Shown: one piece after another, positions 15,210 through 63,015 of the stretch
Layout of the letters: each line of letters begins with the position of its first letter
How positions within the stretch are numbered: position 1 is the stretch's first letter
NCBI GenBank assembly: GCA_020725805.1
Contig: DYEF01000065.1
Location: 1 to 64,000 of the forward strand
Length of the DNA: 64,000 nt
Direction: 5' to 3'
Source of the DNA: Bdellovibrio sp.
GTDB lineage: Bacteria; Myxococcota; SpSt-1050
The notes under the pieces: generated by a model
Seen by the model: only the letters and a program-made list of their open reading frames with translations
Databases searched by the model: none
What the model was told of the DNA's origin: nothing
Position numbers and translations under genes: made by a program

Positions 15210-16727
15210 TCAGTTACAGGCCGCTTTATATCTGATAGTTACATTATTGGGGCAGTTTGCCGGTACTGCATTACCGGTAAAATATACAGAGTTATGTTCG
15301 CTATTATAGACAAAACCGTTCAGGTCGTCTCTTGGTATATTTATATTATCTCTAAATACCTCTATTGAACCTACTTCAGGCCTTCTTGACAGATAGTATT
15401 CGACATTGCAGGACCTGTTAAAATGTTTTTCAAATAAATAATCAGCCCAGTCGGGACTGCATATCGATGCAAAATGAGAATTTTCAAATTTACTCATAAA
15501 CTCCGCATATCTTTTTGCAGCAACTGCGCCCTTCCCATCAATCACATCGCCACAATCCAGAGGTTTCGGTTCACTGCTACCCGGGTCAAATCCGGCTATT
15601 ACAAAGACATTTATCAGCTTCTCGTTTCTGATTGTCTTAAAGAAATCAGAATAAAAGCTGACAGGCGCACTGGAATTATCATCGGAATCAGTCAGAATAA
15701 GAAGAGTCAGATATGAATAATCATTATCCAGAAAGCCCTTATTCCCCGCCGGATCATTTATATTTGGGTCAGAAAGTGCCTTTTTCAAAGCCAAAAGACA
15801 GGACTCTTTTCCGTCTGGTCTATCCTGCAATACACTGCTGTTGGCAAGAAATGCCTCTTCAAATTTTTCGGTTACAGGTTCAAAGGCAGGATTTCTCGGG
15901 TGCGGGGGAGGAAAATCAGATATAATCTTCGGGTAATTCTCGCTGCCAATAAAAACACCGGGATAATACCACTTTTCACCGATAAGAAACGGTTCATCAG
16001 ACTCCTCTAAGACAACCGACAGATTGAAAATTATATTATATTCATTGCTGAGAGTATCTCTCTTTGTAAGATATGATATGAATTTTTTGAGATTAGGTTT
16101 AATATTCTCTCTCTCATCTGCCATACTCTTTGTAGTATCGATACACCATAGAATATTTTCACCCTTAATCGAATTTGAAACGAATGTATCGGTTATATTC
16201 CTGTCATTAGTTACCTCGCCTTTTATTGACTGTGCTAAAATATTTACATAAATTGCAGAGTCGCTCGCATTAGAGGCGTCAGTAATTATCTTCAGTTTTG
16301 CCTCGTCATAAGCCGCTGTATCAGAACATCTATCGGCAGTATAACGGACTTTTACTATGACAGACTCACCTCTGGCAAGAACCAGTGGCATAACCGGTTT
16401 ATCAATGACAGCAAATCTCTCTGCCTTATCTGAAATAATTTCTACGTTCTTTATCTCCAATGATTTATCACCGCAGGAGATAAGTCTGATTTCCCTTTCG
16501 GACGTTTCATCAGGCAGGGCATCCTCAATTTTGATGCTCAAAGGCTCAATACAAAGTTTTGAAGATTTTTCAGCCCCGGCATTATCCGGATTTTCTGATA
16601 TAATATCATAGGTAATATTATCGGTTAGAGAAGAAACATCCTGAAGAACTCCGTTCTCTTTTGCGTCGCAGGCAAATAATAACGCAATAACTAACCCAAA
16701 AATGGCTGTAAATTTTACTCTTTTCAT
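15210..16727 (-). CDS. Lipoprotein with HYDIN-like and von Willebrand A-like domains
   Basis: 505 aa. Lipoprotein signal with lipobox LFAC (C20); the next residue is Asp (D21), which in E. coli retains lipoproteins in the inner membrane. Residues about 60-170 look like an ASPM/HYDIN-type immunoglobulin-like domain (ETSEREIRLISCGDKSLEIKNVEI, then VILARGESVIVKVRYTA-like pattern). Residues about 190-430 resemble a VWA domain: ILWCIDTTKSM is a MIDAS-like D-x-T-x-S, and LTLLILTDSDDNS a later strand. The C-terminal 70 residues contain paired cysteines. The gene has its own promoter and stands just downstream of the Cys-rich lipoprotein operon. Binding partner unknown. Confidence 0.75.
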   Translation of the reverse strand: MKRVKFTAIFGLVIALLFACDAKENGVLQDVSSLTDNITYDIISENPDNAGAEKSSKLCIEPLSIKIEDALPDETSEREIRLISCGDKSLEIKNVEIISDKAERFAVIDKPVMPLVLARGESVIVKVRYTADRCSDTAAYDEAKLKIITDASNASDSAIYVNILAQSIKGEVTNDRNITDTFVSNSIKGENILWCIDTTKSMADERENIKPNLKKFISYLTKRDTLSNEYNIIFNLSVVLEESDEPFLIGEKWYYPGVFIGSENYPKIISDFPPPHPRNPAFEPVTEKFEEAFLANSSVLQDRPDGKESCLLALKKALSDPNINDPAGNKGFLDNDYSYLTLLILTDSDDNSSAPVSFYSDFFKTIRNEKLINVFVIAGFDPGSSEPKPLDCGDVIDGKGAVAAKRYAEFMSKFENSHFASICSPDWADYLFEKHFNRSCNVEYYLSRRPEVGSIEVFRDNINIPRDDLNGFVYNSEHNSVYFTGNAVPANCPNNVTIRYKAACN

Positions 16728-16831: not shown

Positions 16832-17596
16832 TTACTGCACACTCATACAGGTACAGAGTGTGTTTCCGGCAGTAGTACACATAATAGCAGGTGCTTCACA
16901 GTCTGTCTTGGTTGTACAGGAATGAGAACACCCATTATATTTCGCACCACTTAGAGGATTGGTAAACTCAACACAGATAAATCCGTTTGCCGTATCACAG
17001 TCTCTGTTATCATTACAGGCATTACACATCTTCCCGGTACCGCTGCCACAGGGGGATTTGCACTCACATATACCGCCATTACAAAGTCCGCAATTTACAT
17101 ACCCACATTGTTGATCACATTCATTATCAGATTTACATTCGGGGGGCACACATACATTATTTTTACAGATAAAGTCTGAGTCATTACACCAGATTTTACA
17201 CTCATCATTATTAGAGCATTTATCTGAACATAAATGCTCGTCACAGATGTAATTTATACATTTGTCTGACGGACAATCAGAATTCTGACAACATTTATTC
17301 AACGCCAGGACACAATTTCCGTCTTTGCAGACCTGACAGTTCGGGTCACATGCAGGATTACAGACTATCTGCTCGATACACAAAAATGACTTTCCAACAT
17401 CACATTTGGTCTTTCCGTCTGTCCTGTTTTTACAGTCATCATCGTTTACACACTCCTCGCACCTGCCTTCAAAAACATTGCAGTGCCACCCACACGGACA
17501 ATCATTATTATTTGCACATATTCCATAATCAACACAATAGCCATTTTTACATATCTTATTGGGCTTACACTTCTCAGAACAATTATCAGTGCACTC
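16832..17596. repeat. direct repeat, copy 2 (type A lipoprotein C-terminal block)
   Basis: About 765 bp encoding residues 130-383 of the type A copy 2 gene. It is a diverged direct duplicate of 20130-20891; long identical stretches are visible, for example around 16949-16970 versus 20242-20263. The repeat ends close to the shared coding block, while upstream sequences differ. Confidence 0.8.
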
Positions 17597-17983
17597 AGTA
17601 AAACCAGTATCAGAACTCACATCAAAACCACCATCTGTAATCTCGACCTTTGTTTCACAGCCGTCTCCCCACAGACCATTAGAGTTGACATATCCTTCCT
17701 TACACCCGCATAATCCTTTTATGCAAACAGAATTTTTGCCGCAGGACAGACCACAGGCACCGCAATTCTCAGGGTCTGATATCTTATTGGTCTCACAACC
17801 GTTCTCCCAGTCGAAATCGCAATCTTCATACCCCTCTATGCAGACGCAGCTATCTCCTTCTATTTTCGTATTTTGCGGGCACACAAGGTCACCACCTGCA
17901 TCCTTTCCCGGACTACTTTTATTTTCAACAGATATGCAACCAAAGACTAATAATGTAAAAATAATAGGAAACATAATTCTCAT
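16832..17983 (-). CDS. Cys-rich lipoprotein, type A copy 2
   Basis: 383 aa. Start at 17983 is chosen over an in-frame codon at 18016 because GGAGGT lies 8 bases upstream and the signal peptide then begins MRIMFP. Lipobox VFGC, lipidated C16. The N-terminal part (about 35-112) holds two myxobacterial-type modules ending W-x-N/D-G-C-E (DFDWENGCET, GLWGDGCET). From about residue 129 to the end it is nearly the same protein as the type A copy at 20130-21209 (CTDNCSEKCKPNKICKNGYC ... LCTCMSVQ), with dozens of cysteines in disulfide-knot spacing. Probably a rigid surface-exposed module stack. Last gene of the unit from 19977; 17 bases after the type B gene. No known function. Confidence 0.85.
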   Translation of the reverse strand: MRIMFPIIFTLLVFGCISVENKSSPGKDAGGDLVCPQNTKIEGDSCVCIEGYEDCDFDWENGCETNKISDPENCGACGLSCGKNSVCIKGLCGCKEGYVNSNGLWGDGCETKVEITDGGFDVSSDTGFTECTDNCSEKCKPNKICKNGYCVDYGICANNNDCPCGWHCNVFEGRCEECVNDDDCKNRTDGKTKCDVGKSFLCIEQIVCNPACDPNCQVCKDGNCVLALNKCCQNSDCPSDKCINYICDEHLCSDKCSNNDECKIWCNDSDFICKNNVCVPPECKSDNECDQQCGYVNCGLCNGGICECKSPCGSGTGKMCNACNDNRDCDTANGFICVEFTNPLSGAKYNGCSHSCTTKTDCEAPAIMCTTAGNTLCTCMSVQ

Positions 17984-18000
17984 TACAATCACCTCCAATA

Positions 18001-19122
18001 TTATTGACAAATACATTGCTTATACTGAGTATCACAGGATTTTCCAAAGCAATCCTCAGGGGTATAACACTCTACTCCGCAGGTGCCTCCCTTAAATGGA
18101 TTCATAGGGTCAATAGGTTGACATATTAAAGGGGATGGGCAGTTACTTAATGTTACTGAACAGCTCTTGCAAAAATCAGGATTAACGGGTTGACAGCTTG
18201 CGGGATTTGTCTTGCTATTACAGAATTCTTTAGTGTAATCACAGCTTCCATTACATGCATCCTGAATCTTCTGGCAGGTTTTTGATACAATTTCACAAAA
18301 ATACCCTTTTGTCATATCACACTGCTGATTACTGATACACTCAACACATTCAAATGAATCCCCGATATCGCAAAACTTTTTTACCGGATTATTCGAACAC
18401 TCTTGATCGGAATGACAAATCTTTACTACCTTCTTACATATCTTATTCCCTTTATCACAATACTGGTCTTCACAACAATCTTTGTCAACAAGACATCCAG
18501 ATACACAACTTGGCGAATCATCAATAATTTCACAATAAGTTCCGCAGATGCAAACGAAATTGCTGCAGCCCGAACCTAAGTCACTTAAAACATCAGTTAA
18601 AATATCAAAATGCTGAATATCTCCGCTTATAATATCTTCCAAAATATCCTTTACATCCTCAGTTCGGATTTCTACAATATCATTTAATTCAACTCTATTC
18701 TCACACCCGTTCTGCCAGTTTTTATCTTCATTAATATAACCACTCACACATTCACACTTGCCGTTTTTGCAGAGTGAATTCTCTCCGCAATAATCCAGAC
18801 AATTCCCACAATGGAATTTATTGCTTAGAATCTCAGTCTCACAGCCGTTTGCCCAATTGTTATCACAATTTGCATAACCATACATACAGACACATCCGCC
18901 GTTTACACATTTTGCAGAGTTCCCGCAATCGACATTGCACAAAGTTTCGGCATCTTCCTCCTCTTCTTCCATCTTCTGACATACGAAATTTTCATCACAG
19001 AAAAAGCCCTTAAGACAGGTACCGTTTTCGAAACATGGTTCACCCTCCCCACCCATTTTTGCCTTTTCAACACAACCGAGCGGTAGCACCAAAAAAAAGA
19101 ATAATATTATTGCCCTTTTCAT
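18001..19122 (-). CDS. Cys-rich lipoprotein, type B copy 2
   Basis: 373 aa. AGGAGG precedes the ATG; lipobox PLGC (C17). After a short Glu-rich spacer come two modules of the W-x-N-G-C-E type (NNWANGCETE, KNWQNGCEN), then an Asp/Ile-rich tether (EDVKDILEDIISGD...), then a Cys-rich block beginning FVCICGTYC and ending QCICQ. That last block matches, at moderate identity, the type B protein at 21230-22381. It has no enzyme motif. Placed between the CsgG/FlgO-like gene (18-base gap) and type A copy 2 (17-base gap), so the three are co-transcribed. Confidence 0.82.
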   Translation of the reverse strand: MKRAIILFFFLVLPLGCVEKAKMGGEGEPCFENGTCLKGFFCDENFVCQKMEEEEEDAETLCNVDCGNSAKCVNGGCVCMYGYANCDNNWANGCETEILSNKFHCGNCLDYCGENSLCKNGKCECVSGYINEDKNWQNGCENRVELNDIVEIRTEDVKDILEDIISGDIQHFDILTDVLSDLGSGCSNFVCICGTYCEIIDDSPSCVSGCLVDKDCCEDQYCDKGNKICKKVVKICHSDQECSNNPVKKFCDIGDSFECVECISNQQCDMTKGYFCEIVSKTCQKIQDACNGSCDYTKEFCNSKTNPASCQPVNPDFCKSCSVTLSNCPSPLICQPIDPMNPFKGGTCGVECYTPEDCFGKSCDTQYKQCICQ

Positions 19123-19140
19123 ACAACACCCTCCTGAAAA

Positions 19141-19977
19141 CTACTCTCTGCTATCAAAATCCATATAAAACATTACGCCGGAGGCAATAAGAAGTCCACC
19201 CCCCAGAATATAAGATGTCAGTGCAAGGGTATTATAAAAACCAACCCTATTACTCCAGTAATCCGGATTTTCACCAAGCTTGAAATTTTCATTGGCAACA
19301 TATGCATTATATGTAAATAATCCCCCTAAACTCATTACGGCCACCCCGCCACCCAGCAACAAATAATTAACTATATTACTCTTCCTGTTTTCCCTACCTT
19401 CCTTCTTCTGTAGAGTAATCCCTGCATCAGATTTTAAGTCGGATATTCTGGTTTCAGTTTTTTCTGCCATTTTCACCGGCTTATGGAGTATAGCAAATTT
19501 ATTAAACGTTTCTATAAACTTCCCGATTATCTCAGATATGCTTTTTTGCGTCATAATTGACTCTCTAAACACCAGTTTGTTCTGTCTGATATCCAGAATA
19601 TTCAGTATTGCCGTATAATTCTCTCCGATTATGGCCGCAGAACCGGACACTAAATAATCCACATCCGTTGCTTTTGAAAATAATAACAGACATTCATCAG
19701 TATTCTGACAACCTGCAATACCTCGCTTTTCAAGTTCTGTTTTCAGTGTCGAATCATTTATTCGAATAATGCTAAATGATTGATTGTTAATAATCTCAGT
19801 GGACAAAACATCTGTAAGTATATTGGCTATATCGCCTGAACTACTATTTTCAGGCCTGACTTCATAGAACAGAATCATAATCTTTTTATCTACCGGCTTC
19901 TTTTCTTCAGGAGTCAAAACTTCGGCATACAGATAATCTGCACAAATAAAAACAAGAAGGTATATCAATTTTCCCAT
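19141..19977 (-). CDS. Secreted CsgG/FlgO-like protein with C-terminal membrane helices
   Basis: 278 aa. A signal peptide (1-18, cleavage likely after YLYA) precedes an alpha/beta domain (about 30-165) that resembles the CsgG/FlgO/LpoB-type fold: KKIMILFYEV, IIRINDSTLKTELEKRG, CQNTDECLLLFSKATDVDYLVSGS, then YTAILNILDI. In myxobacteria such domains often precede membrane-anchored envelope proteins. Two hydrophobic stretches follow (about 207-230 and 246-272), so the C-terminus is membrane embedded. It heads the unit that carries the second B-A lipoprotein pair and has a near-perfect promoter. Role unknown; an assembly or stabilising partner for the lipoproteins is only an inference. Confidence 0.7.
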   Translation of the reverse strand: MGKLIYLLVFICADYLYAEVLTPEEKKPVDKKIMILFYEVRPENSSSGDIANILTDVLSTEIINNQSFSIIRINDSTLKTELEKRGIAGCQNTDECLLLFSKATDVDYLVSGSAAIIGENYTAILNILDIRQNKLVFRESIMTQKSISEIIGKFIETFNKFAILHKPVKMAEKTETRISDLKSDAGITLQKKEGRENRKSNIVNYLLLGGGVAVMSLGGLFTYNAYVANENFKLGENPDYWSNRVGFYNTLALTSYILGGGLLIASGVMFYMDFDSRE

Positions 19978-20002
19978 AAATTAAGACCTCTGAATGATTA
20001 TA

Positions 20003-20031
20003 TTTATAAACAAAATTACCTGAATTGTCAA
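20003..20031 (-). promoter_or_regulatory. sigma70 promoter of the second Cys-rich lipoprotein unit
   Basis: Minus strand TTGACA (20026-20031), 17 bases, TATAAA (20003-20008). It lies just downstream of the terminator at 20071-20105, marking a clean transcription boundary between the two lipoprotein cassettes. Confidence 0.8.
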
Positions 20032-20070
20032 AACATTACAACCCGGCTCAAAATAACAAATCTTACATAA

Positions 20071-20105
20071 AATAAAAAAGCCTTCTGAATTTATCAGAAG
20101 GCTTA
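20071..20105 (-). terminator. Rho-independent terminator after type A copy 1
   Basis: Perfect 10-bp stem AGCCTTCTGA / TCAGAAGGCT with a 5-base loop (20079-20103), followed on the minus strand by six U residues. It lies 25 bases after the stop of the type A gene at 20130. Confidence 0.92.
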
Positions 20106-20129
20106 TAATCAGATTATGCTATTAAAACT

Positions 20130-20891
20130 TTACTGTACACTCATACAGGAGCAGAGGGTTCCTCCGCCAGCCAGACACATAATTGCGGGTGCTTCGCAAT
20201 CTTCTTTAGCTGCGCAGGCGTGCGTGCACCCCTTATAGGTCGCACCACTTAGAGGATTGGTAAACTCATAACAGGTAAATCCGTTTGTAGTATCACAGTC
20301 AGAATCATCGTTACAGGCATTGCACATTACACCTGTTCCGCCACCGCAGGGGGATTTGCACTGGCAGTTTCCGCCGACGCATTGACCACAACCTGCTCCG
20401 CACTGCGGGTCACACTCAGTATCTGTCTGACAACCCTGTGGCATACAAACATTATTATTGCAGACATAAGATGAATCCCTGCACCAGTCCTTACACTCCT
20501 GATCAGTTGAGCAGACATCCGAGCAGGTATGTGCCTGCTGGCATTCGTAGTTTACACAGTTGTTTGACGGGCAGTCGGAGTTCTGGCAGCATTTATTGGG
20601 GGCCAGTACACAATTACCATCCTTACATACCTGACAGTTCGGGTCGCAGGCAGGATTACAGACCGGCGGCTCAATGCACAAAAATGTCTTGCCGATATCA
20701 CACTTAGTCTTGCCGTCTGTCCTGTTCTTGCAGTCATCATCACTTGCACACTCCTCACATCTGCTCTCAAAGGAGTTGCAGTGCCATCCACAGGGACAAT
20801 CATTATCATTATTGCAGTTTCCGTAATCTATACAATAGCCGTTTTTACAGATCTTATTAGGTTTGCACCTTTCAGAACAGTTATCGGTGCA
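20130..20891. repeat. direct repeat, copy 1 (type A lipoprotein C-terminal block)
   Basis: About 762 bp encoding residues 107-359 of type A copy 1, in direct orientation to 16832-17596 and about 3.3 kb away. Homologous recombination between the two would delete or duplicate the intervening CsgG/FlgO-like and type B genes. Confidence 0.8.
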
Positions 20892-21209
20892 ATCTGTTCC
20901 TCCCTCATCAGGCAACAACTCCTCGCCCGCATCGACCGATTCGGTCTTACAGGTATATGTAACAAGGTCACACTTATTCCCTTTTTTCTTATCGATACAA
21001 TCTTTGTCTTTCAGACATTCGGGAACTTTGCAGACAGAACTAACACACTTCTCGCCGGCTGACTTGTTGCAGTCATTATCTGACTTACAGATATTGCTCT
21101 TTGCATCCTTACTGGTACCGGCATCGGCATCGTTTGCAGGATTATCATTACATACAAATACAAACAGCGTCGAAAACATCACAAAGAAAACAAACAAAAA
21201 CTTTTTCAT
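20130..21209 (-). CDS. Cys-rich lipoprotein, type A copy 1
   Basis: 359 aa. AAGGAGG before the ATG; lipobox VFVC (C20). Residues about 40-90 form a short Cys module (CKSDNDCNKSAGEKC...) different from the N-terminus of copy 2. A Asp/Glu-rich joint (about 92-105) leads to the shared block (106-359) with about thirty cysteines, ending LCSCMSVQ. The shared block is near-identical in spacing to the gene at 16832-17983. It is the last gene of a two-gene unit with the type B copy 1 gene (20-base gap) and is followed by a strong terminator. Surface or outer-membrane location is inferred from the lipobox with Asn at +2. Confidence 0.85.
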   Translation of the reverse strand: MKKFLFVFFVMFSTLFVFVCNDNPANDADAGTSKDAKSNICKSDNDCNKSAGEKCVSSVCKVPECLKDKDCIDKKKGNKCDLVTYTCKTESVDAGEELLPDEGGTDCTDNCSERCKPNKICKNGYCIDYGNCNNDNDCPCGWHCNSFESRCEECASDDDCKNRTDGKTKCDIGKTFLCIEPPVCNPACDPNCQVCKDGNCVLAPNKCCQNSDCPSNNCVNYECQQAHTCSDVCSTDQECKDWCRDSSYVCNNNVCMPQGCQTDTECDPQCGAGCGQCVGGNCQCKSPCGGGTGVMCNACNDDSDCDTTNGFTCYEFTNPLSGATYKGCTHACAAKEDCEAPAIMCLAGGGTLCSCMSVQ

Positions 21210-21229
21210 AAAATATCCTCCTTGTTAAC

Positions 21230-22381
21230 TTATGGACAGGAACACCAGCCAAACATATTGCAGGTGTACCCGAAACATTCACTGTCATCATTGCATTGTT
21301 TGGTACATTTTTTTGTTGTCAGACCACAGGTAAGACTGCTCAGGACACAGACAGGGTCAAGCACCTGAGAACAGGCAGCACACCAGTTTGAAGGTATATC
21401 CTCACATTGTTTTTTTACAGGATTACACCACTGGGTCCCCTGATTGCAGGTCCCGTAACACTCATCCACCTTATATTTGCACATATGACTTCCGTCACAA
21501 TAGTAATTGGACTGACAGTGGAGGTCATTCGTACATTCATAACAAATCCCTGAAATTGCCTCACAGTGCGGTTTTGAGCCATCTTTACAGTCCGAATCAT
21601 CAGAGCAGCTCGTCTTTTCACACTTTCCTGACTTACATACCGTATTTGCGCAGCAATCTGTATCCTTCTTGCAACCGGCGACACAGTTCGGATTACCGCC
21701 TTCAACAACACATATCGAGCCACACAGACATATATAATCGGCACAGGGGTCTGTTATTACATCAGGCTGGATATCCTGAATTATATCCGCACCTGTATCC
21801 GACGGTGTATCAGCCGGAGCATCTTCTATATCCACAATATCATATCCGGCATCGGCAACTTCACAGACATTGGTAGCAGGATTGCACTCACCGATCTTGC
21901 AGTGCTGATTTTCATAACACTCAACACATATACCTTTCTCCGGATGACAGTTTGGAATATTAAGAGGACAATCCAGATTTTTTTTGCAAAGAACAGATGC
22001 ATCATCACTTATATCTGTCTGGTCCGAAAGACCGGTATCGGAGGCATCGGAATAAATATCTTCCTCAGTTGTCTCCGTAATAATATCCTTTATGCATTCG
22101 TAGCAGCTGCCATTCAATACATTGCAGCACCTGTTATCTCCGCAGTCCTCATCCTTCTGACAAAACGTATTCTGGCAGCGACAGACTCCCTGCTGGCATT
22201 TTCCGTCGAAACAGTCTGTATCCTCTCTGCACATAATACCATCCTTACAGGATGTTACCTTACCGGAATCCTTTACAATATTTATATCCTGAGGCAACTC
22301 GGATTTCTCCTCGCATCCAAATAAAAAGGATAAAAGGATAATGGGTACAAAAGTCAAAACTGACTTATTTAAGATATACAT
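21230..22381 (-). CDS. Cys-rich lipoprotein, type B copy 1
   Basis: 383 aa. Lipobox LFGC (C23). Modules in order: a Cys block (about 42-95), an acidic Asp/Ser/Thr tether (TEEDIYSDASDTGLSD...), a second small Cys block, a second acidic tether (DIVDIEDAPADTPSD...), then a C-terminal Cys block beginning YICLCGSICVVEGG and ending WCSCP that corresponds to the end of the type B gene at 18001. The ATG has no ribosome site and lies 6 bases after a perfect TATAAT, so the message is probably leaderless. First gene of the B1-A1 unit. Function unknown; architecture suggests a tethered, disulfide-rich surface protein. Confidence 0.82.
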   Translation of the reverse strand: MYILNKSVLTFVPIILLSFLFGCEEKSELPQDINIVKDSGKVTSCKDGIMCREDTDCFDGKCQQGVCRCQNTFCQKDEDCGDNRCCNVLNGSCYECIKDIITETTEEDIYSDASDTGLSDQTDISDDASVLCKKNLDCPLNIPNCHPEKGICVECYENQHCKIGECNPATNVCEVADAGYDIVDIEDAPADTPSDTGADIIQDIQPDVITDPCADYICLCGSICVVEGGNPNCVAGCKKDTDCCANTVCKSGKCEKTSCSDDSDCKDGSKPHCEAISGICYECTNDLHCQSNYYCDGSHMCKYKVDECYGTCNQGTQWCNPVKKQCEDIPSNWCAACSQVLDPVCVLSSLTCGLTTKKCTKQCNDDSECFGYTCNMFGWCSCP

Positions 22382-22387
22382 ACTATT

Positions 22388-22416
22388 ATTATACTAAAAT
22401 CGGAATTTGGTGTCAA
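22388..22416 (-). promoter_or_regulatory. perfect consensus sigma70 promoter, leaderless
   Basis: Minus strand TTGACA (22411-22416), 17-base spacer, TATAAT (22388-22393): all twelve bases match consensus. The -10 ends 6 bases before the ATG of the type B copy 1 gene, so transcription should start at or next to the initiation codon. Confidence 0.85.
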
Positions 22417-43411: not shown

Positions 43412-43440
43412 TTGACTAACTTTCGTTTGGGTAATATAAT
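43412..43440 (+). promoter_or_regulatory. sigma70 promoter of the Cys-repeat lipoprotein gene
   Basis: TTGACT (43412-43417), 17 bases, perfect TATAAT (43435-43440). Transcription would begin near 43447, which fixes the ATG at 43466 as the start. Confidence 0.8.
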
Positions 43441-43465
43441 TACTCTTGTGATATGTTATGACGTT

Positions 43466-44572
43466 ATGAAGACCGGTAATGTAATTTATCCCTTTTTAAT
43501 CCTTTCCCTTTTCAGCTGCTCAGTTGACTATTCAGTCCTTGAGGAAAGATTCTGCAATTCCCAAAATCAATGTATAGAGGGCTATAAGTGTGATCTGGCA
43601 ACCGGCAAATGCATAAAATCACCGGATTCATCGGATATATCTTTCAGGGATATCATATCGGATATTGACAGCGGGCTCACTGACCTGTTAACGGAAGATG
43701 TTAAGGACGACACCGATGACAGAAGTTATTCTGATACATATCAGGACATAATTTCAGATATCAAAGACACAGGATATCCGGATATATCAAATGACAGCGG
43801 CCTGTGCGAAACCGGTATATTTACCTGCAGGGATAATGACCTCTACAGATGTGATGAAAACGGCCTAATGGTACTCGAAAAGAGCTGTGAAATGGGATGC
43901 AAAAATGACCATTGTATTGAATGTCTGCCCAACGAAAAAGTCTGTACAGATGAAGAGAATCTCAGAATATGCAATCAGGAAGGTCTCTTCGAATCCCAGA
44001 AATGCACTTATAAATGCTATAACAATCAATGTGTAATCTGTCTGCCTACCGACAAATACTGTAACGGCAAAAAGGCCCTGAAATGTAATCCGATCGGCAC
44101 AAAATGGGAAGAGAAAGATTGTGAAATCGGGTGTTCGGCCGGAGAATGTATGATATGTGAACCGGAAGTTACAAAAAAATGTGTCGATAATGATATTTAT
44201 ACCTGTACTGCCTCCGGAATGGATTATTCAAAGACACAAAACTGTTGTCATGAAAACAACTGCACAGATGGCAATTGCGTAATTACTGCACCAAGAGTAA
44301 CAGATTACAACCCGAAAGACTGGAAAGTCGGAGGCACTATTTACTGGGATATATACGGATGCTTCTTTGTCAGTAATGCATCGAAGGTGATGATAGATTT
44401 TGGCGGTTCGTGGAAAGAAATTACCGAATACGACAATTATGAATATTCAATGAGAACAGAAGAACGTATTCAGATTAAGGTCAAGGTCCTGACCGGCACA
44501 GAATTCAATTTTAAGGTTGTAAATCCCGACGGTCAGAGTACTCAGCAATATCCTATAAAAAAACACTATTAA
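43466..44572 (+). CDS. Cys-repeat lipoprotein with C-terminal Ig-like (IPT/TIG-type) domain
   Basis: 368 aa. Lipobox LFSC (C18). After one Cys module comes a long Asp/Ser-rich tether (DSSDISFRDIISDIDSG...). Residues about 125-270 contain four repeats of roughly 42 residues, each C-x-D/N-x2-LYRCD-type start, a Gly turn and C-x3-C-x4/5-C ending (for example SCEMGCKNDHC, KCTYKCYNNQC, DCEIGCSAGEC). The C-terminal 85 residues look like an IPT/TIG-type beta domain (APRVTDYNPKDWKVGG ... FNFKVVNPDG). The longer TTG start at 43412 coincides with the -35 box and is rejected. There is no ribosome site; two tiny frames precede the ATG. Likely surface-exposed. Confidence 0.8.
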   Translation: MKTGNVIYPFLILSLFSCSVDYSVLEERFCNSQNQCIEGYKCDLATGKCIKSPDSSDISFRDIISDIDSGLTDLLTEDVKDDTDDRSYSDTYQDIISDIKDTGYPDISNDSGLCETGIFTCRDNDLYRCDENGLMVLEKSCEMGCKNDHCIECLPNEKVCTDEENLRICNQEGLFESQKCTYKCYNNQCVICLPTDKYCNGKKALKCNPIGTKWEEKDCEIGCSAGECMICEPEVTKKCVDNDIYTCTASGMDYSKTQNCCHENNCTDGNCVITAPRVTDYNPKDWKVGGTIYWDIYGCFFVSNASKVMIDFGGSWKEITEYDNYEYSMRTEERIQIKVKVLTGTEFNFKVVNPDGQSTQQYPIKKHY

Positions 44573-62031: not shown

Positions 62032-63015
62032 TTATCCGGCACTGATTTTTCCTGATGCAATCTTCATTGCCTGCATTATCCTGATATTGTTTTCATAGTA
62101 AAAGCCGCCTTTACGATATGCCCAGTAACAGATATAATCAAACCCTCCGACCTTTTTCCTCCTGATATTTCCGATATCTATCAGATATTTGGTCTTTCTC
62201 AAATCTTCTTTGATTATGTTGCCAATCCTGTATCTTTCATCCTCGATGAATCTCCAGCAGGGATAAATATCACCATTTATGTCAACCGAAAATATTCTCT
62301 TACCCAGTTCACAGAACGGTTCTTTGTGAAAACTGACTTTTCCTTTTTTAATTCCTGATTCTATTATTCTGTCGAACAACGGGACAGAAAGAAGACCACC
62401 CGATTTTGTAATTTCAATATATCTGATCAAAGCTTCTGTAAGATAATCTGCAATGATTCCAGGACGAATCTTTGTCAATCCGGTATCCGAATAATCAAAG
62501 GCAATGCTCAGCTTCGAAAAACCATTTTTATAAAAAAAGGTAATCATATCCGGAAGGAGAGAGAGATTCGACGAATTTACGGTAGTACGGATATCTGTTC
62601 TCTCCCTGCAATCAAATAAACGGTTCGAGTAATTCTTTTCCGAAATATTAATATCCGCCGAAAGGATTATTCTGAAATCATTCTTTAACAGAAAATCACA
62701 GACCTCTCTGTCCAGAAGTTTCCCGTTGGTGTTAACGGAAAGACTGAAGCTGTATTTTCTGGTCTTTAAATAACTGACGGCATATTGCATCAGGTCAAAA
62801 TCCAGAAGCGGCTCCTTGCCGAAAAATCCGAGTTCAGGTATTCTTTTCTGTCTCCTGCTAATTACAGCTATCCGGTCAATTATGTCTCTGAGGACATCTC
62901 TATTTATACGGCTACCGTCGTTAAGGTTTTTAAGATAACAGTAACCACAATTCAGATTACATCTGTGATTTATAAATAATGCCCAGATGATTTTATCTTT
63001 TTTTCTCTTTTTCAA
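62032..63015 (-). CDS. Radical SAM enzyme with SPASM-like C-terminus
   Basis: 327 aa. Cluster C19-x3-C23-x2-C26 (HRCNLNCGYCYLK), a GGE-like FFGKEPLLDF, SAM strand SVNTNGKLLD, and C-terminal cysteines C235, C253 and C296 (EPFCELGKR, DIYPCWRF, GFDYICYW) consistent with SPASM or twitch auxiliary clusters, as in anSME and peptide maturases. The start is a forced TTG at 63015, as an in-frame stop lies just upstream. It overlaps the FAD oxidoreductase gene by 23 bases. A peptide or protein substrate is expected but none is visible nearby. Confidence 0.82.
   Translation of the reverse strand: MKKRKKDKIIWALFINHRCNLNCGYCYLKNLNDGSRINRDVLRDIIDRIAVISRRQKRIPELGFFGKEPLLDFDLMQYAVSYLKTRKYSFSLSVNTNGKLLDREVCDFLLKNDFRIILSADINISEKNYSNRLFDCRERTDIRTTVNSSNLSLLPDMITFFYKNGFSKLSIAFDYSDTGLTKIRPGIIADYLTEALIRYIEITKSGGLLSVPLFDRIIESGIKKGKVSFHKEPFCELGKRIFSVDINGDIYPCWRFIEDERYRIGNIIKEDLRKTKYLIDIGNIRRKKVGGFDYICYWAYRKGGFYYENNIRIMQAMKIASGKISAG

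What the first reader, a model, noticed from the sequence alone, without database searches (positions are those of the whole stretch)
16832..22381. Duplicated two-gene cassette of disulfide-rich lipoproteins (B1-A1, terminator, CsgG/FlgO-like, B2-A2)
Four Cys-rich lipoprotein genes fall into two types arranged as the same ordered pair twice. Type A proteins share residues 106-359 (A1) and 129-383 (A2) almost cysteine for cysteine; the type B proteins share their C-terminal block at lower identity. A strong terminator and a new promoter split the copies, and the second copy has gained a secreted CsgG/FlgO-like gene in front. Conserved pairing of A with B through duplication suggests that the two products work together, perhaps as a surface complex. 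I know of no described system with this layout.
Basis: partly seen in the sequence, partly recalled or inferred. Interest (0 to 1): 0.75.

Follow-up and report, generated by a model that had tools for sequence, protein, structure and literature searches.

The report
Paired disulfide-rich lipoprotein genes, reshuffled copy
A poorly known deltaproteobacterium carries two neighbouring pairs of genes for very cysteine-rich, probably lipid-anchored envelope proteins; the pairing is old and conserved, one partner contains a small fold resembling scorpion toxins and defensins, and the second pair was put together from parts of different genes rather than copied whole.

Summary
The four Cys-rich genes, their order, terminator and promoters are real. 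A1 and A2 share 48 of 48 cysteines over their C-terminal ~250 residues (72% identity; far above Cys-fixed shuffles). The pairing claim largely survives: B followed by A recurs in all three available genomes of the class, at this locus and at a second, older locus. The 'duplicated cassette' claim does not: B2's C-terminal half is 73% identical to a solo B gene on another contig (B3) but 33% to B1, while A2 is closest to A1, and both carry new, mutually similar N-terminal modules. The second operon (G-B2-A2) is therefore a mosaic, not a block copy, and has no counterpart in the sister genome as assembled. A and B are themselves distant paralogues, so adjacency may partly be inherited. New: all twelve genes assigned to type A carry a strict CS-alpha-beta signature (scorpion toxin/cis-defensin framework), absent from B and from the other Cys-rich proteins examined; its profile matches solved scorpion peptides (1.4e-6, 2.3e-5). 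Most likely an envelope-anchored disulfide-rich pair whose A partner displays a knottin-like binding module. Partnership and biochemical function are inferred, not shown.

The parts
21230..22381 (-). B1: type B Cys-rich probable lipoprotein, 383 aa, first gene of operon 1
   Evidence: ORF; orthologue 66% identical in sister genome, 38% in same-order genome
20130..21209 (-). A1: type A Cys-rich probable lipoprotein, 359 aa, strong SD, 20 nt after B1
   Evidence: ORF; 74% identical orthologue in the sister genome, directly after its B1
20358..20432 (-). CS-alpha-beta (scorpion-toxin/cis-defensin-like) module of A1, residues 260-284
   Evidence: strict 6-Cys + GxC signature; PDB profile matches 2lix 1.4e-6, 6mrq 2.3e-5
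20078..20104 (-). intrinsic terminator after A1
   Evidence: 11-bp stem, loop 5, TTTTATTTTA tail
22388..22416 (-). sigma-70-type promoter of B1-A1, TTGACA-17-TATAAT, ends 7 nt before ATG (probably leaderless)
   Evidence: 12/12 consensus; same element at nearly the same spacing in the sister genome
20003..20031 (-). likely promoter of G-B2-A2, TTGACA-17-TATAAA
   Evidence: read from sequence
19141..19977 (-). G: probably secreted protein with a C-terminal pair of hydrophobic segments; CsgG/FlgO label not confirmed
   Evidence: no Pfam/NCBIfam/PDB match; 29-30% identical paralogue at G000:C66; no orthologue in sister genome
18001..19122 (-). B2: type B Cys-rich probable lipoprotein, 373 aa; C-terminal half of B3 type
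   Evidence: 73% identity to B3, 33% to B1 over the C-terminal half; tree 99/98
18679..18927 (-). MXAN_6577-like Cys-rich N-terminal repeat module of B2 (residues 66-148)
   Evidence: 45-49% identical to A2 residues 35-117; NF041328 0.006, below cut-off
16832..17983 (-). A2: type A Cys-rich probable lipoprotein, 383 aa; C-terminal half of A1 type
   Evidence: 72% identity to A1, 48/48 Cys
17633..17881 (-). MXAN_6577-like N-terminal repeat module of A2 (residues 35-117), shared with B2
17060..17137 (-). CS-alpha-beta module of A2 (residues 283-308)

Best explanation
B and A are two paralogous families of large, disulfide-rich, probably lipid-anchored envelope proteins that are kept as an ordered two-gene operon (B then A). 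Each is modular: signal/lipobox-like start, variable Cys-rich N-terminal module, acidic linker, conserved Cys-rich C-terminal domain with an even number of cysteines (48 in A, 32 in B) that should be fully paired in the periplasm or outside. The A C-terminal domain contains an invariant CS-alpha-beta (scorpion-toxin/cis-defensin-like) module. Most likely mechanism: both proteins are exported, oxidised and displayed from the envelope as stiff knottin arrays; B is the co-expressed partner or base and A carries the CS-alpha-beta module that binds something outside (another cell's surface, a protease or a polymer). In this species a second operon (G-B2-A2) was assembled with an A from the A1 line, a B from the solo B3 line and matched new N-terminal modules, giving a second specificity. 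Shown: genes, homology, conserved order, mosaic origin, signature. Inferred: surface display, A-B contact, binding role.
For: Conserved order B->A at two loci in 3 of 3 genomes of the class; type assignment of the second locus: A326~A 8e-14 and B538~B 2.7e-25, against 1e-7 and 8e-6 for the cross comparisons, real scores 103 and 187 against Cys-fixed column permutation maxima 32 and 61. Mosaic origin: B2-B3 73% against B2-B1 33%; A2-A1 72%; trees 99/98 and 92/87. The two N-terminal modules within cassette 2 match each other (48.6%). CS-alpha-beta signature in all twelve genes assigned to type A and in no B or other Cys-rich ORF examined; chance under composition shuffling 0-0.35% per protein; profile hits 2lix 1.4e-6 and 6mrq 2.3e-5, above the 0.005 reached by a B-module control profile. 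Even, fully conserved Cys counts and no CxxCH haem motif.
Against: A and B are distantly homologous, so adjacency could be inherited from tandem duplication. B3 has no A; A genes at G002:C89 and C225 have no B. Only three genomes in the class are held, so few independent events. Structure models are poor (mean pLDDT 46.5 and 48.0), so neither the fold of the CS-alpha-beta module nor an A-B interface is demonstrated. Some lipoboxes are non-canonical. No experimental data.
Confidence: 0.5

Rival explanations
1. A and B sit together only because they descend from an old tandem duplication; each is an independent envelope protein and there is no A-B complex.
For: A and B are distantly homologous over most of their length (hhalign 2e-15, score 117 against permutation maximum 51). 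Tandem Cys-rich genes are common in the phylum (G016:C23 four in a row; G006 and G007 pairs). B3 and some A genes stand alone.
Against: In cassette 2 a B3-type B stands before an A1-type A in the same order, which plain inheritance of one tandem duplication does not predict; N-terminal modules of the two partners match.
Confidence: 0.27
2. Structural Cys-rich envelope proteins, cross-linked by intermolecular disulfides into a protective coat, working like the chlamydial OmcA/OmcB pair.
For: Two adjacent, very Cys-rich envelope protein genes, as recalled for chlamydial omcA/omcB; even Cys numbers.
Against: The Cys pattern with repeated knottin-like frameworks points to intramolecular disulfides; lineage-specific swapping of N-terminal modules fits binding specificity better than a coat. 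Not tested directly.
Confidence: 0.12
3. Radical-SAM-modified proteins: Cys-rich lipoproteins whose Cys are thioether-cross-linked by a PapB-like radical SAM/SPASM enzyme.
For: PapB-like genes abut or closely neighbour Cys-rich relatives at three independent loci: B3 (convergent, conserved in two species), G016:C23 (directly after four Cys-rich genes), G002:C85.
Against: None stands next to the cassettes of this window; all matches are far below the family cut-off of 340 bits (61-195); loci were chosen for Cys-rich genes, so the association is only suggestive; cytoplasmic modification before export of ~40-kDa lipoproteins would be unusual.
Confidence: 0.08

Closest known systems
Myxobacterial Cys-rich repeat proteins (TIGR04201), e.g. 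TraA
   Same: Secreted Cys-rich repeat arrays thought to be disulfide-bonded; TraA is a cell-surface recognition protein encoded in a two-gene operon with traB (PMC3325183). A relative of A/B in G016 carries TIGR04201 repeats above cut-off.
   Different: A and B themselves do not reach TIGR04201; no PA14 domain match; lipobox-like start; the partner is another Cys-rich protein, not TraB.
MXAN_6577-like cysteine-rich protein (NF041328)
   Same: N-terminal repeat modules of A2 and B2 match weakly (3e-5, 0.006).
   Different: Far below the curated cut-off (16-24 bits against 100); C-terminal domains lie outside the model.
Cis-defensins / CS-alpha-beta peptides (xanthusin-1 of Myxococcus xanthus, scorpion short toxins, ToPI1)
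   Same: C-x5-C-x3-C-x4..9-GxC-x4-C-x-C framework with gamma-core GxC; profile matches; bacterial cis-defensins with GXC known from myxobacteria (PMC11561630).
   Different: Here the module is embedded in a ~360-aa Cys-rich probable lipoprotein, not a small secreted peptide; the xanthusin-1 match (0.0045) is no better than a control profile.
Chlamydial OmcA/OmcB cysteine-rich envelope proteins
   Same: Two adjacent genes for Cys-rich envelope proteins, one a lipoprotein (recalled, not tested).
   Different: No sequence similarity claimed or tested; here both partners are large and homologous to each other.
PapB ranthipeptide maturase systems
   Same: PapB-like radical SAM genes beside some Cys-rich relatives.
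   Different: Not next to these cassettes; matches far below the family cut-off; these proteins are large, ranthipeptide precursors are peptides (recalled).

Membership tests
TIGR04201 / TraA-type Cys-rich repeat proteins | match to the 22-aa repeat model at the 25-bit cut-off | tested here: not met
   no match for A1, A2, B1, B2 at E<=1; a G016 relative reaches 41 bits
TIGR04201 / TraA-type Cys-rich repeat proteins | PA14 recognition domain, as in TraA | tested here: not met
   no Pfam PA14 match
MXAN_6577-like (NF041328) | score of at least 100 bits | tested here: not met
   23.9 and 16.5 bits
CS-alpha-beta / cis-defensin fold (module only) | six-Cys framework with CxxxC, CxC and GxC | tested here: met
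   A1, A2 and all other A-type relatives
CS-alpha-beta / cis-defensin fold (module only) | helix packed on a beta hairpin by cis disulfides | tested here: inconclusive
   model places helix 263-270 and hairpin 275-284 but at pLDDT about 58; profile similarity 1.4e-6 to 2lix
CS-alpha-beta / cis-defensin fold (module only) | small secreted defence peptide or toxin | tested here: not met
   embedded in a 359-383 aa protein
CsgG/FlgO | Pfam/NCBIfam profile match of G | tested here: not met
   none at 0.1 / 1
Bacterial lipoproteins | signal peptide with lipobox [LVI][ASTVI][GAS]C | tested here: inconclusive
   hydrophobic start ending in Cys in A1, A2, B1, B2; -1 residue is G in B1, B2, A2 but V in A1
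Two-component A-B surface complex | physical interaction | not testable with these tools
   no complex prediction or experiment possible

The most novel reading that the evidence does not exclude
A class of bacteria displays defensin/scorpion-toxin-like CS-alpha-beta modules on large disulfide-rich lipoproteins (type A) together with a dedicated partner (type B) carrying an inhibitor-cystine-knot-like framework, and makes new specificities by swapping N-terminal modules and re-pairing A and B from different loci: a bacterial surface recognition or inhibition system built from knottins.
Probability: 0.2. Interest if true: 0.72.

Novelty: new variant of a known kind. Interest (0 to 1): 0.5.

Why it matters
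Very Cys-rich envelope proteins are widespread in myxobacteria-like phyla but almost all unexplained. A conserved two-gene unit, with a recognisable toxin/defensin-type module fixed in one partner and evidence of modular re-pairing, gives a defined and small system in which to ask what such proteins bind. It also puts CS-alpha-beta-like modules inside large bacterial proteins, which bears on the debated bacterial origin of defensins.

Tried and rejected
Simple tandem block duplication: rejected because B2 groups with B3, not B1. Similarity as Cys-spacing artefact: rejected by Cys-fixed shuffles and column permutations. Haem proteins: no CxxCH. Structure prediction of A1 and B1 from three-sequence alignments gave poor models; Foldseek of the B1 model found only weak EGF/knottin matches, best E 0.5; the A1 fold search could not be queued. 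No Rfam family in the window. No plasmid record holds A1. A wider named-genome scan found only the sister MAG 'Deltaproteobacteria bacterium isolate SKW273'. VLDLR matches of type A (0.02-0.5) are weak and not pursued. The xanthusin-1 match is at the level of the control. Literature searches gave no description of these pairs.

Full report
Observation. All features lie on the minus strand in the order B1-A1-terminator-G-B2-A2, followed by a lipoprotein-like gene V (15210-16727) with its own promoter. B1-A1 and G-B2-A2 read as two operons: A1, A2 and B2 have strong Shine-Dalgarno sequences and start within about 20 nt of the preceding stop, B1 starts 7 nt after a perfect -10 element that is conserved in the sister genome, and an 11-bp stem with a T-rich tail separates the operons. 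A1 and A2 are 72% identical over 273 columns and all 48 C-terminal cysteines coincide. B1 and B2 are related (E 7e-13) but far less (about 26-33% identity).

Relatives. The collection holds only three genomes of the class. The sister species (same genus; its contig carries the title 'Deltaproteobacteria bacterium isolate SKW273') has one B1'-A1' pair in the same synteny, but its contig ends about 110 bases after A1'. The same-order genome G002 has B-Aa-Ab in a row. Another pair, 538 aa then 326 aa on G000:C67, is conserved in all three genomes. Profile comparison assigns the 538-aa protein to B (2.7e-25; to A 8e-6) and the 326-aa protein to A (8e-14; to B 1e-7); permuting non-Cys columns while keeping Cys columns never approached the real scores. 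So an ordered B->A unit exists at two loci and is at least as old as the class as sampled here. Outside the class, tandem Cys-rich genes recur: four in a row in G016, one of them A-like at 3e-17, and pairs in G006 and G007. Full-length A and B are otherwise rare in 195 genomes of the phylum.

Not a block duplication. B2's C-terminal half is 73% identical to B3, a solo gene on another contig, and 33% to B1; A2's is closest to A1. Trees give 99/98 for B2 with B3 and its orthologue, 99/98 for B1 with its orthologue, and 92/87 for A1 with A2 to the exclusion of the sister's A1. The N-terminal parts of A2 and B2 are MXAN_6577-like repeat modules, up to 49% identical to each other and unlike those of A1 and B1. 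Cassette 2 is therefore a mosaic: an A of the A1 line, a B of the B3 line, matched N-terminal modules and the extra gene G. No A2, B2, G or V orthologue was found in the sister genome, where the XerD-side neighbour is another protein; because both contigs end there, loss in an assembly gap cannot be excluded. Pairing is not absolute: B3 is solo in two genomes, and G002 has A genes without B at C89 and C225.

A module in type A. Each of the twelve genes I assign to type A (A1, A2, the sister's A1, Aa, Ab, two at C89, one at C225, three A326, and a 776-aa relative with two copies) holds the strict pattern C-x5-C-x3-C-x4..9-GxC-x4-C-x-C. No B protein and none of the other Cys-rich ORFs in the fetched loci, including the A-like G016 protein, has it. 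A profile of the 13 copies matches a scorpion potassium-channel toxin (2lix, 1.4e-6) and the scorpion trypsin inhibitor ToPI1 (6mrq, 2.3e-5), both with the same six-Cys framework; ToPI1 is described as CS-alpha/beta (PMC10788795). The Myxococcus defensin xanthusin-1 follows at 0.0045. As a control, a short Cys-rich profile from type B matched spider knottins at 0.005, so only the first two hits stand clearly above the level that a Cys framework gives by itself. The A1 model has a helix and hairpin there, at low confidence. This supports a CS-alpha-beta-like module but does not say what it binds.

Mechanism. Export and the Cys-ended hydrophobic starts suggest lipid-anchored envelope proteins; even and conserved Cys numbers suggest complete disulfide pairing. 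The best-supported account is a co-expressed pair of knottin-array proteins, A carrying a fixed CS-alpha-beta module, with specificity tuned by N-terminal modules and by re-pairing. Contact between A and B, surface exposure and ligand are inferred. Rivals are inheritance of adjacency without function, a structural coat, and radical-SAM thioether modification. The last rests on PapB-like genes beside Cys-rich relatives at three independent loci, none in these cassettes.

Verdict. The anatomy is right and the pairing is conserved, but the duplication story is wrong in an informative way. It is a new variant of the Cys-rich surface-protein kind known from myxobacteria rather than a wholly new system.

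Noticed in passing
L038:1356-2369 (+) with B3 at L038:2363-3436 (-); orthologous in L037; L113:7883-9208; L116:68-1171: PapB-like radical SAM genes abut or closely neighbour Cys-rich lipoprotein genes at three independent loci; possible thioether-modifying enzymes for Cys-rich lipoproteins.
   Followed up: partly
L116:7810-8220 (+): A 136-aa ORF 89% identical to part of the radical SAM protein at L116:68-1171, just upstream of the B538/A326 pair: a partial second copy.
   Followed up: no
B-type proteins, e.g. window 21600-21700 (-): The segment GCxxDxDCC...C...C of type B has an inhibitor-cystine-knot-like framework; its profile matches spider theraphotoxins at only 0.005.
   Followed up: partly
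window 22381-22416 (-): B1 probably has a leaderless mRNA: perfect consensus promoter 7 nt from the ATG and no SD, conserved in the sister genome.
   Followed up: partly
window 15210-16727 (-): V: lipoprotein-like protein with a sub-threshold VWA match; relatives, mostly longer proteins (about 1100 aa), in all three genomes but no short orthologue in the sister.
   Followed up: partly
L113:2001-9208: G016 has four consecutive Cys-rich lipoprotein-like genes followed at once by a PapB-like radical SAM/SPASM gene.
   Followed up: partly
window 43412-44572 (+): Another Cys-rich (8.3%) lipoprotein-like protein without a known family.
   Followed up: no
window 62032-63015 (-): Radical SAM protein with a weak SPASM match, not near Cys-rich genes.
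   Followed up: no
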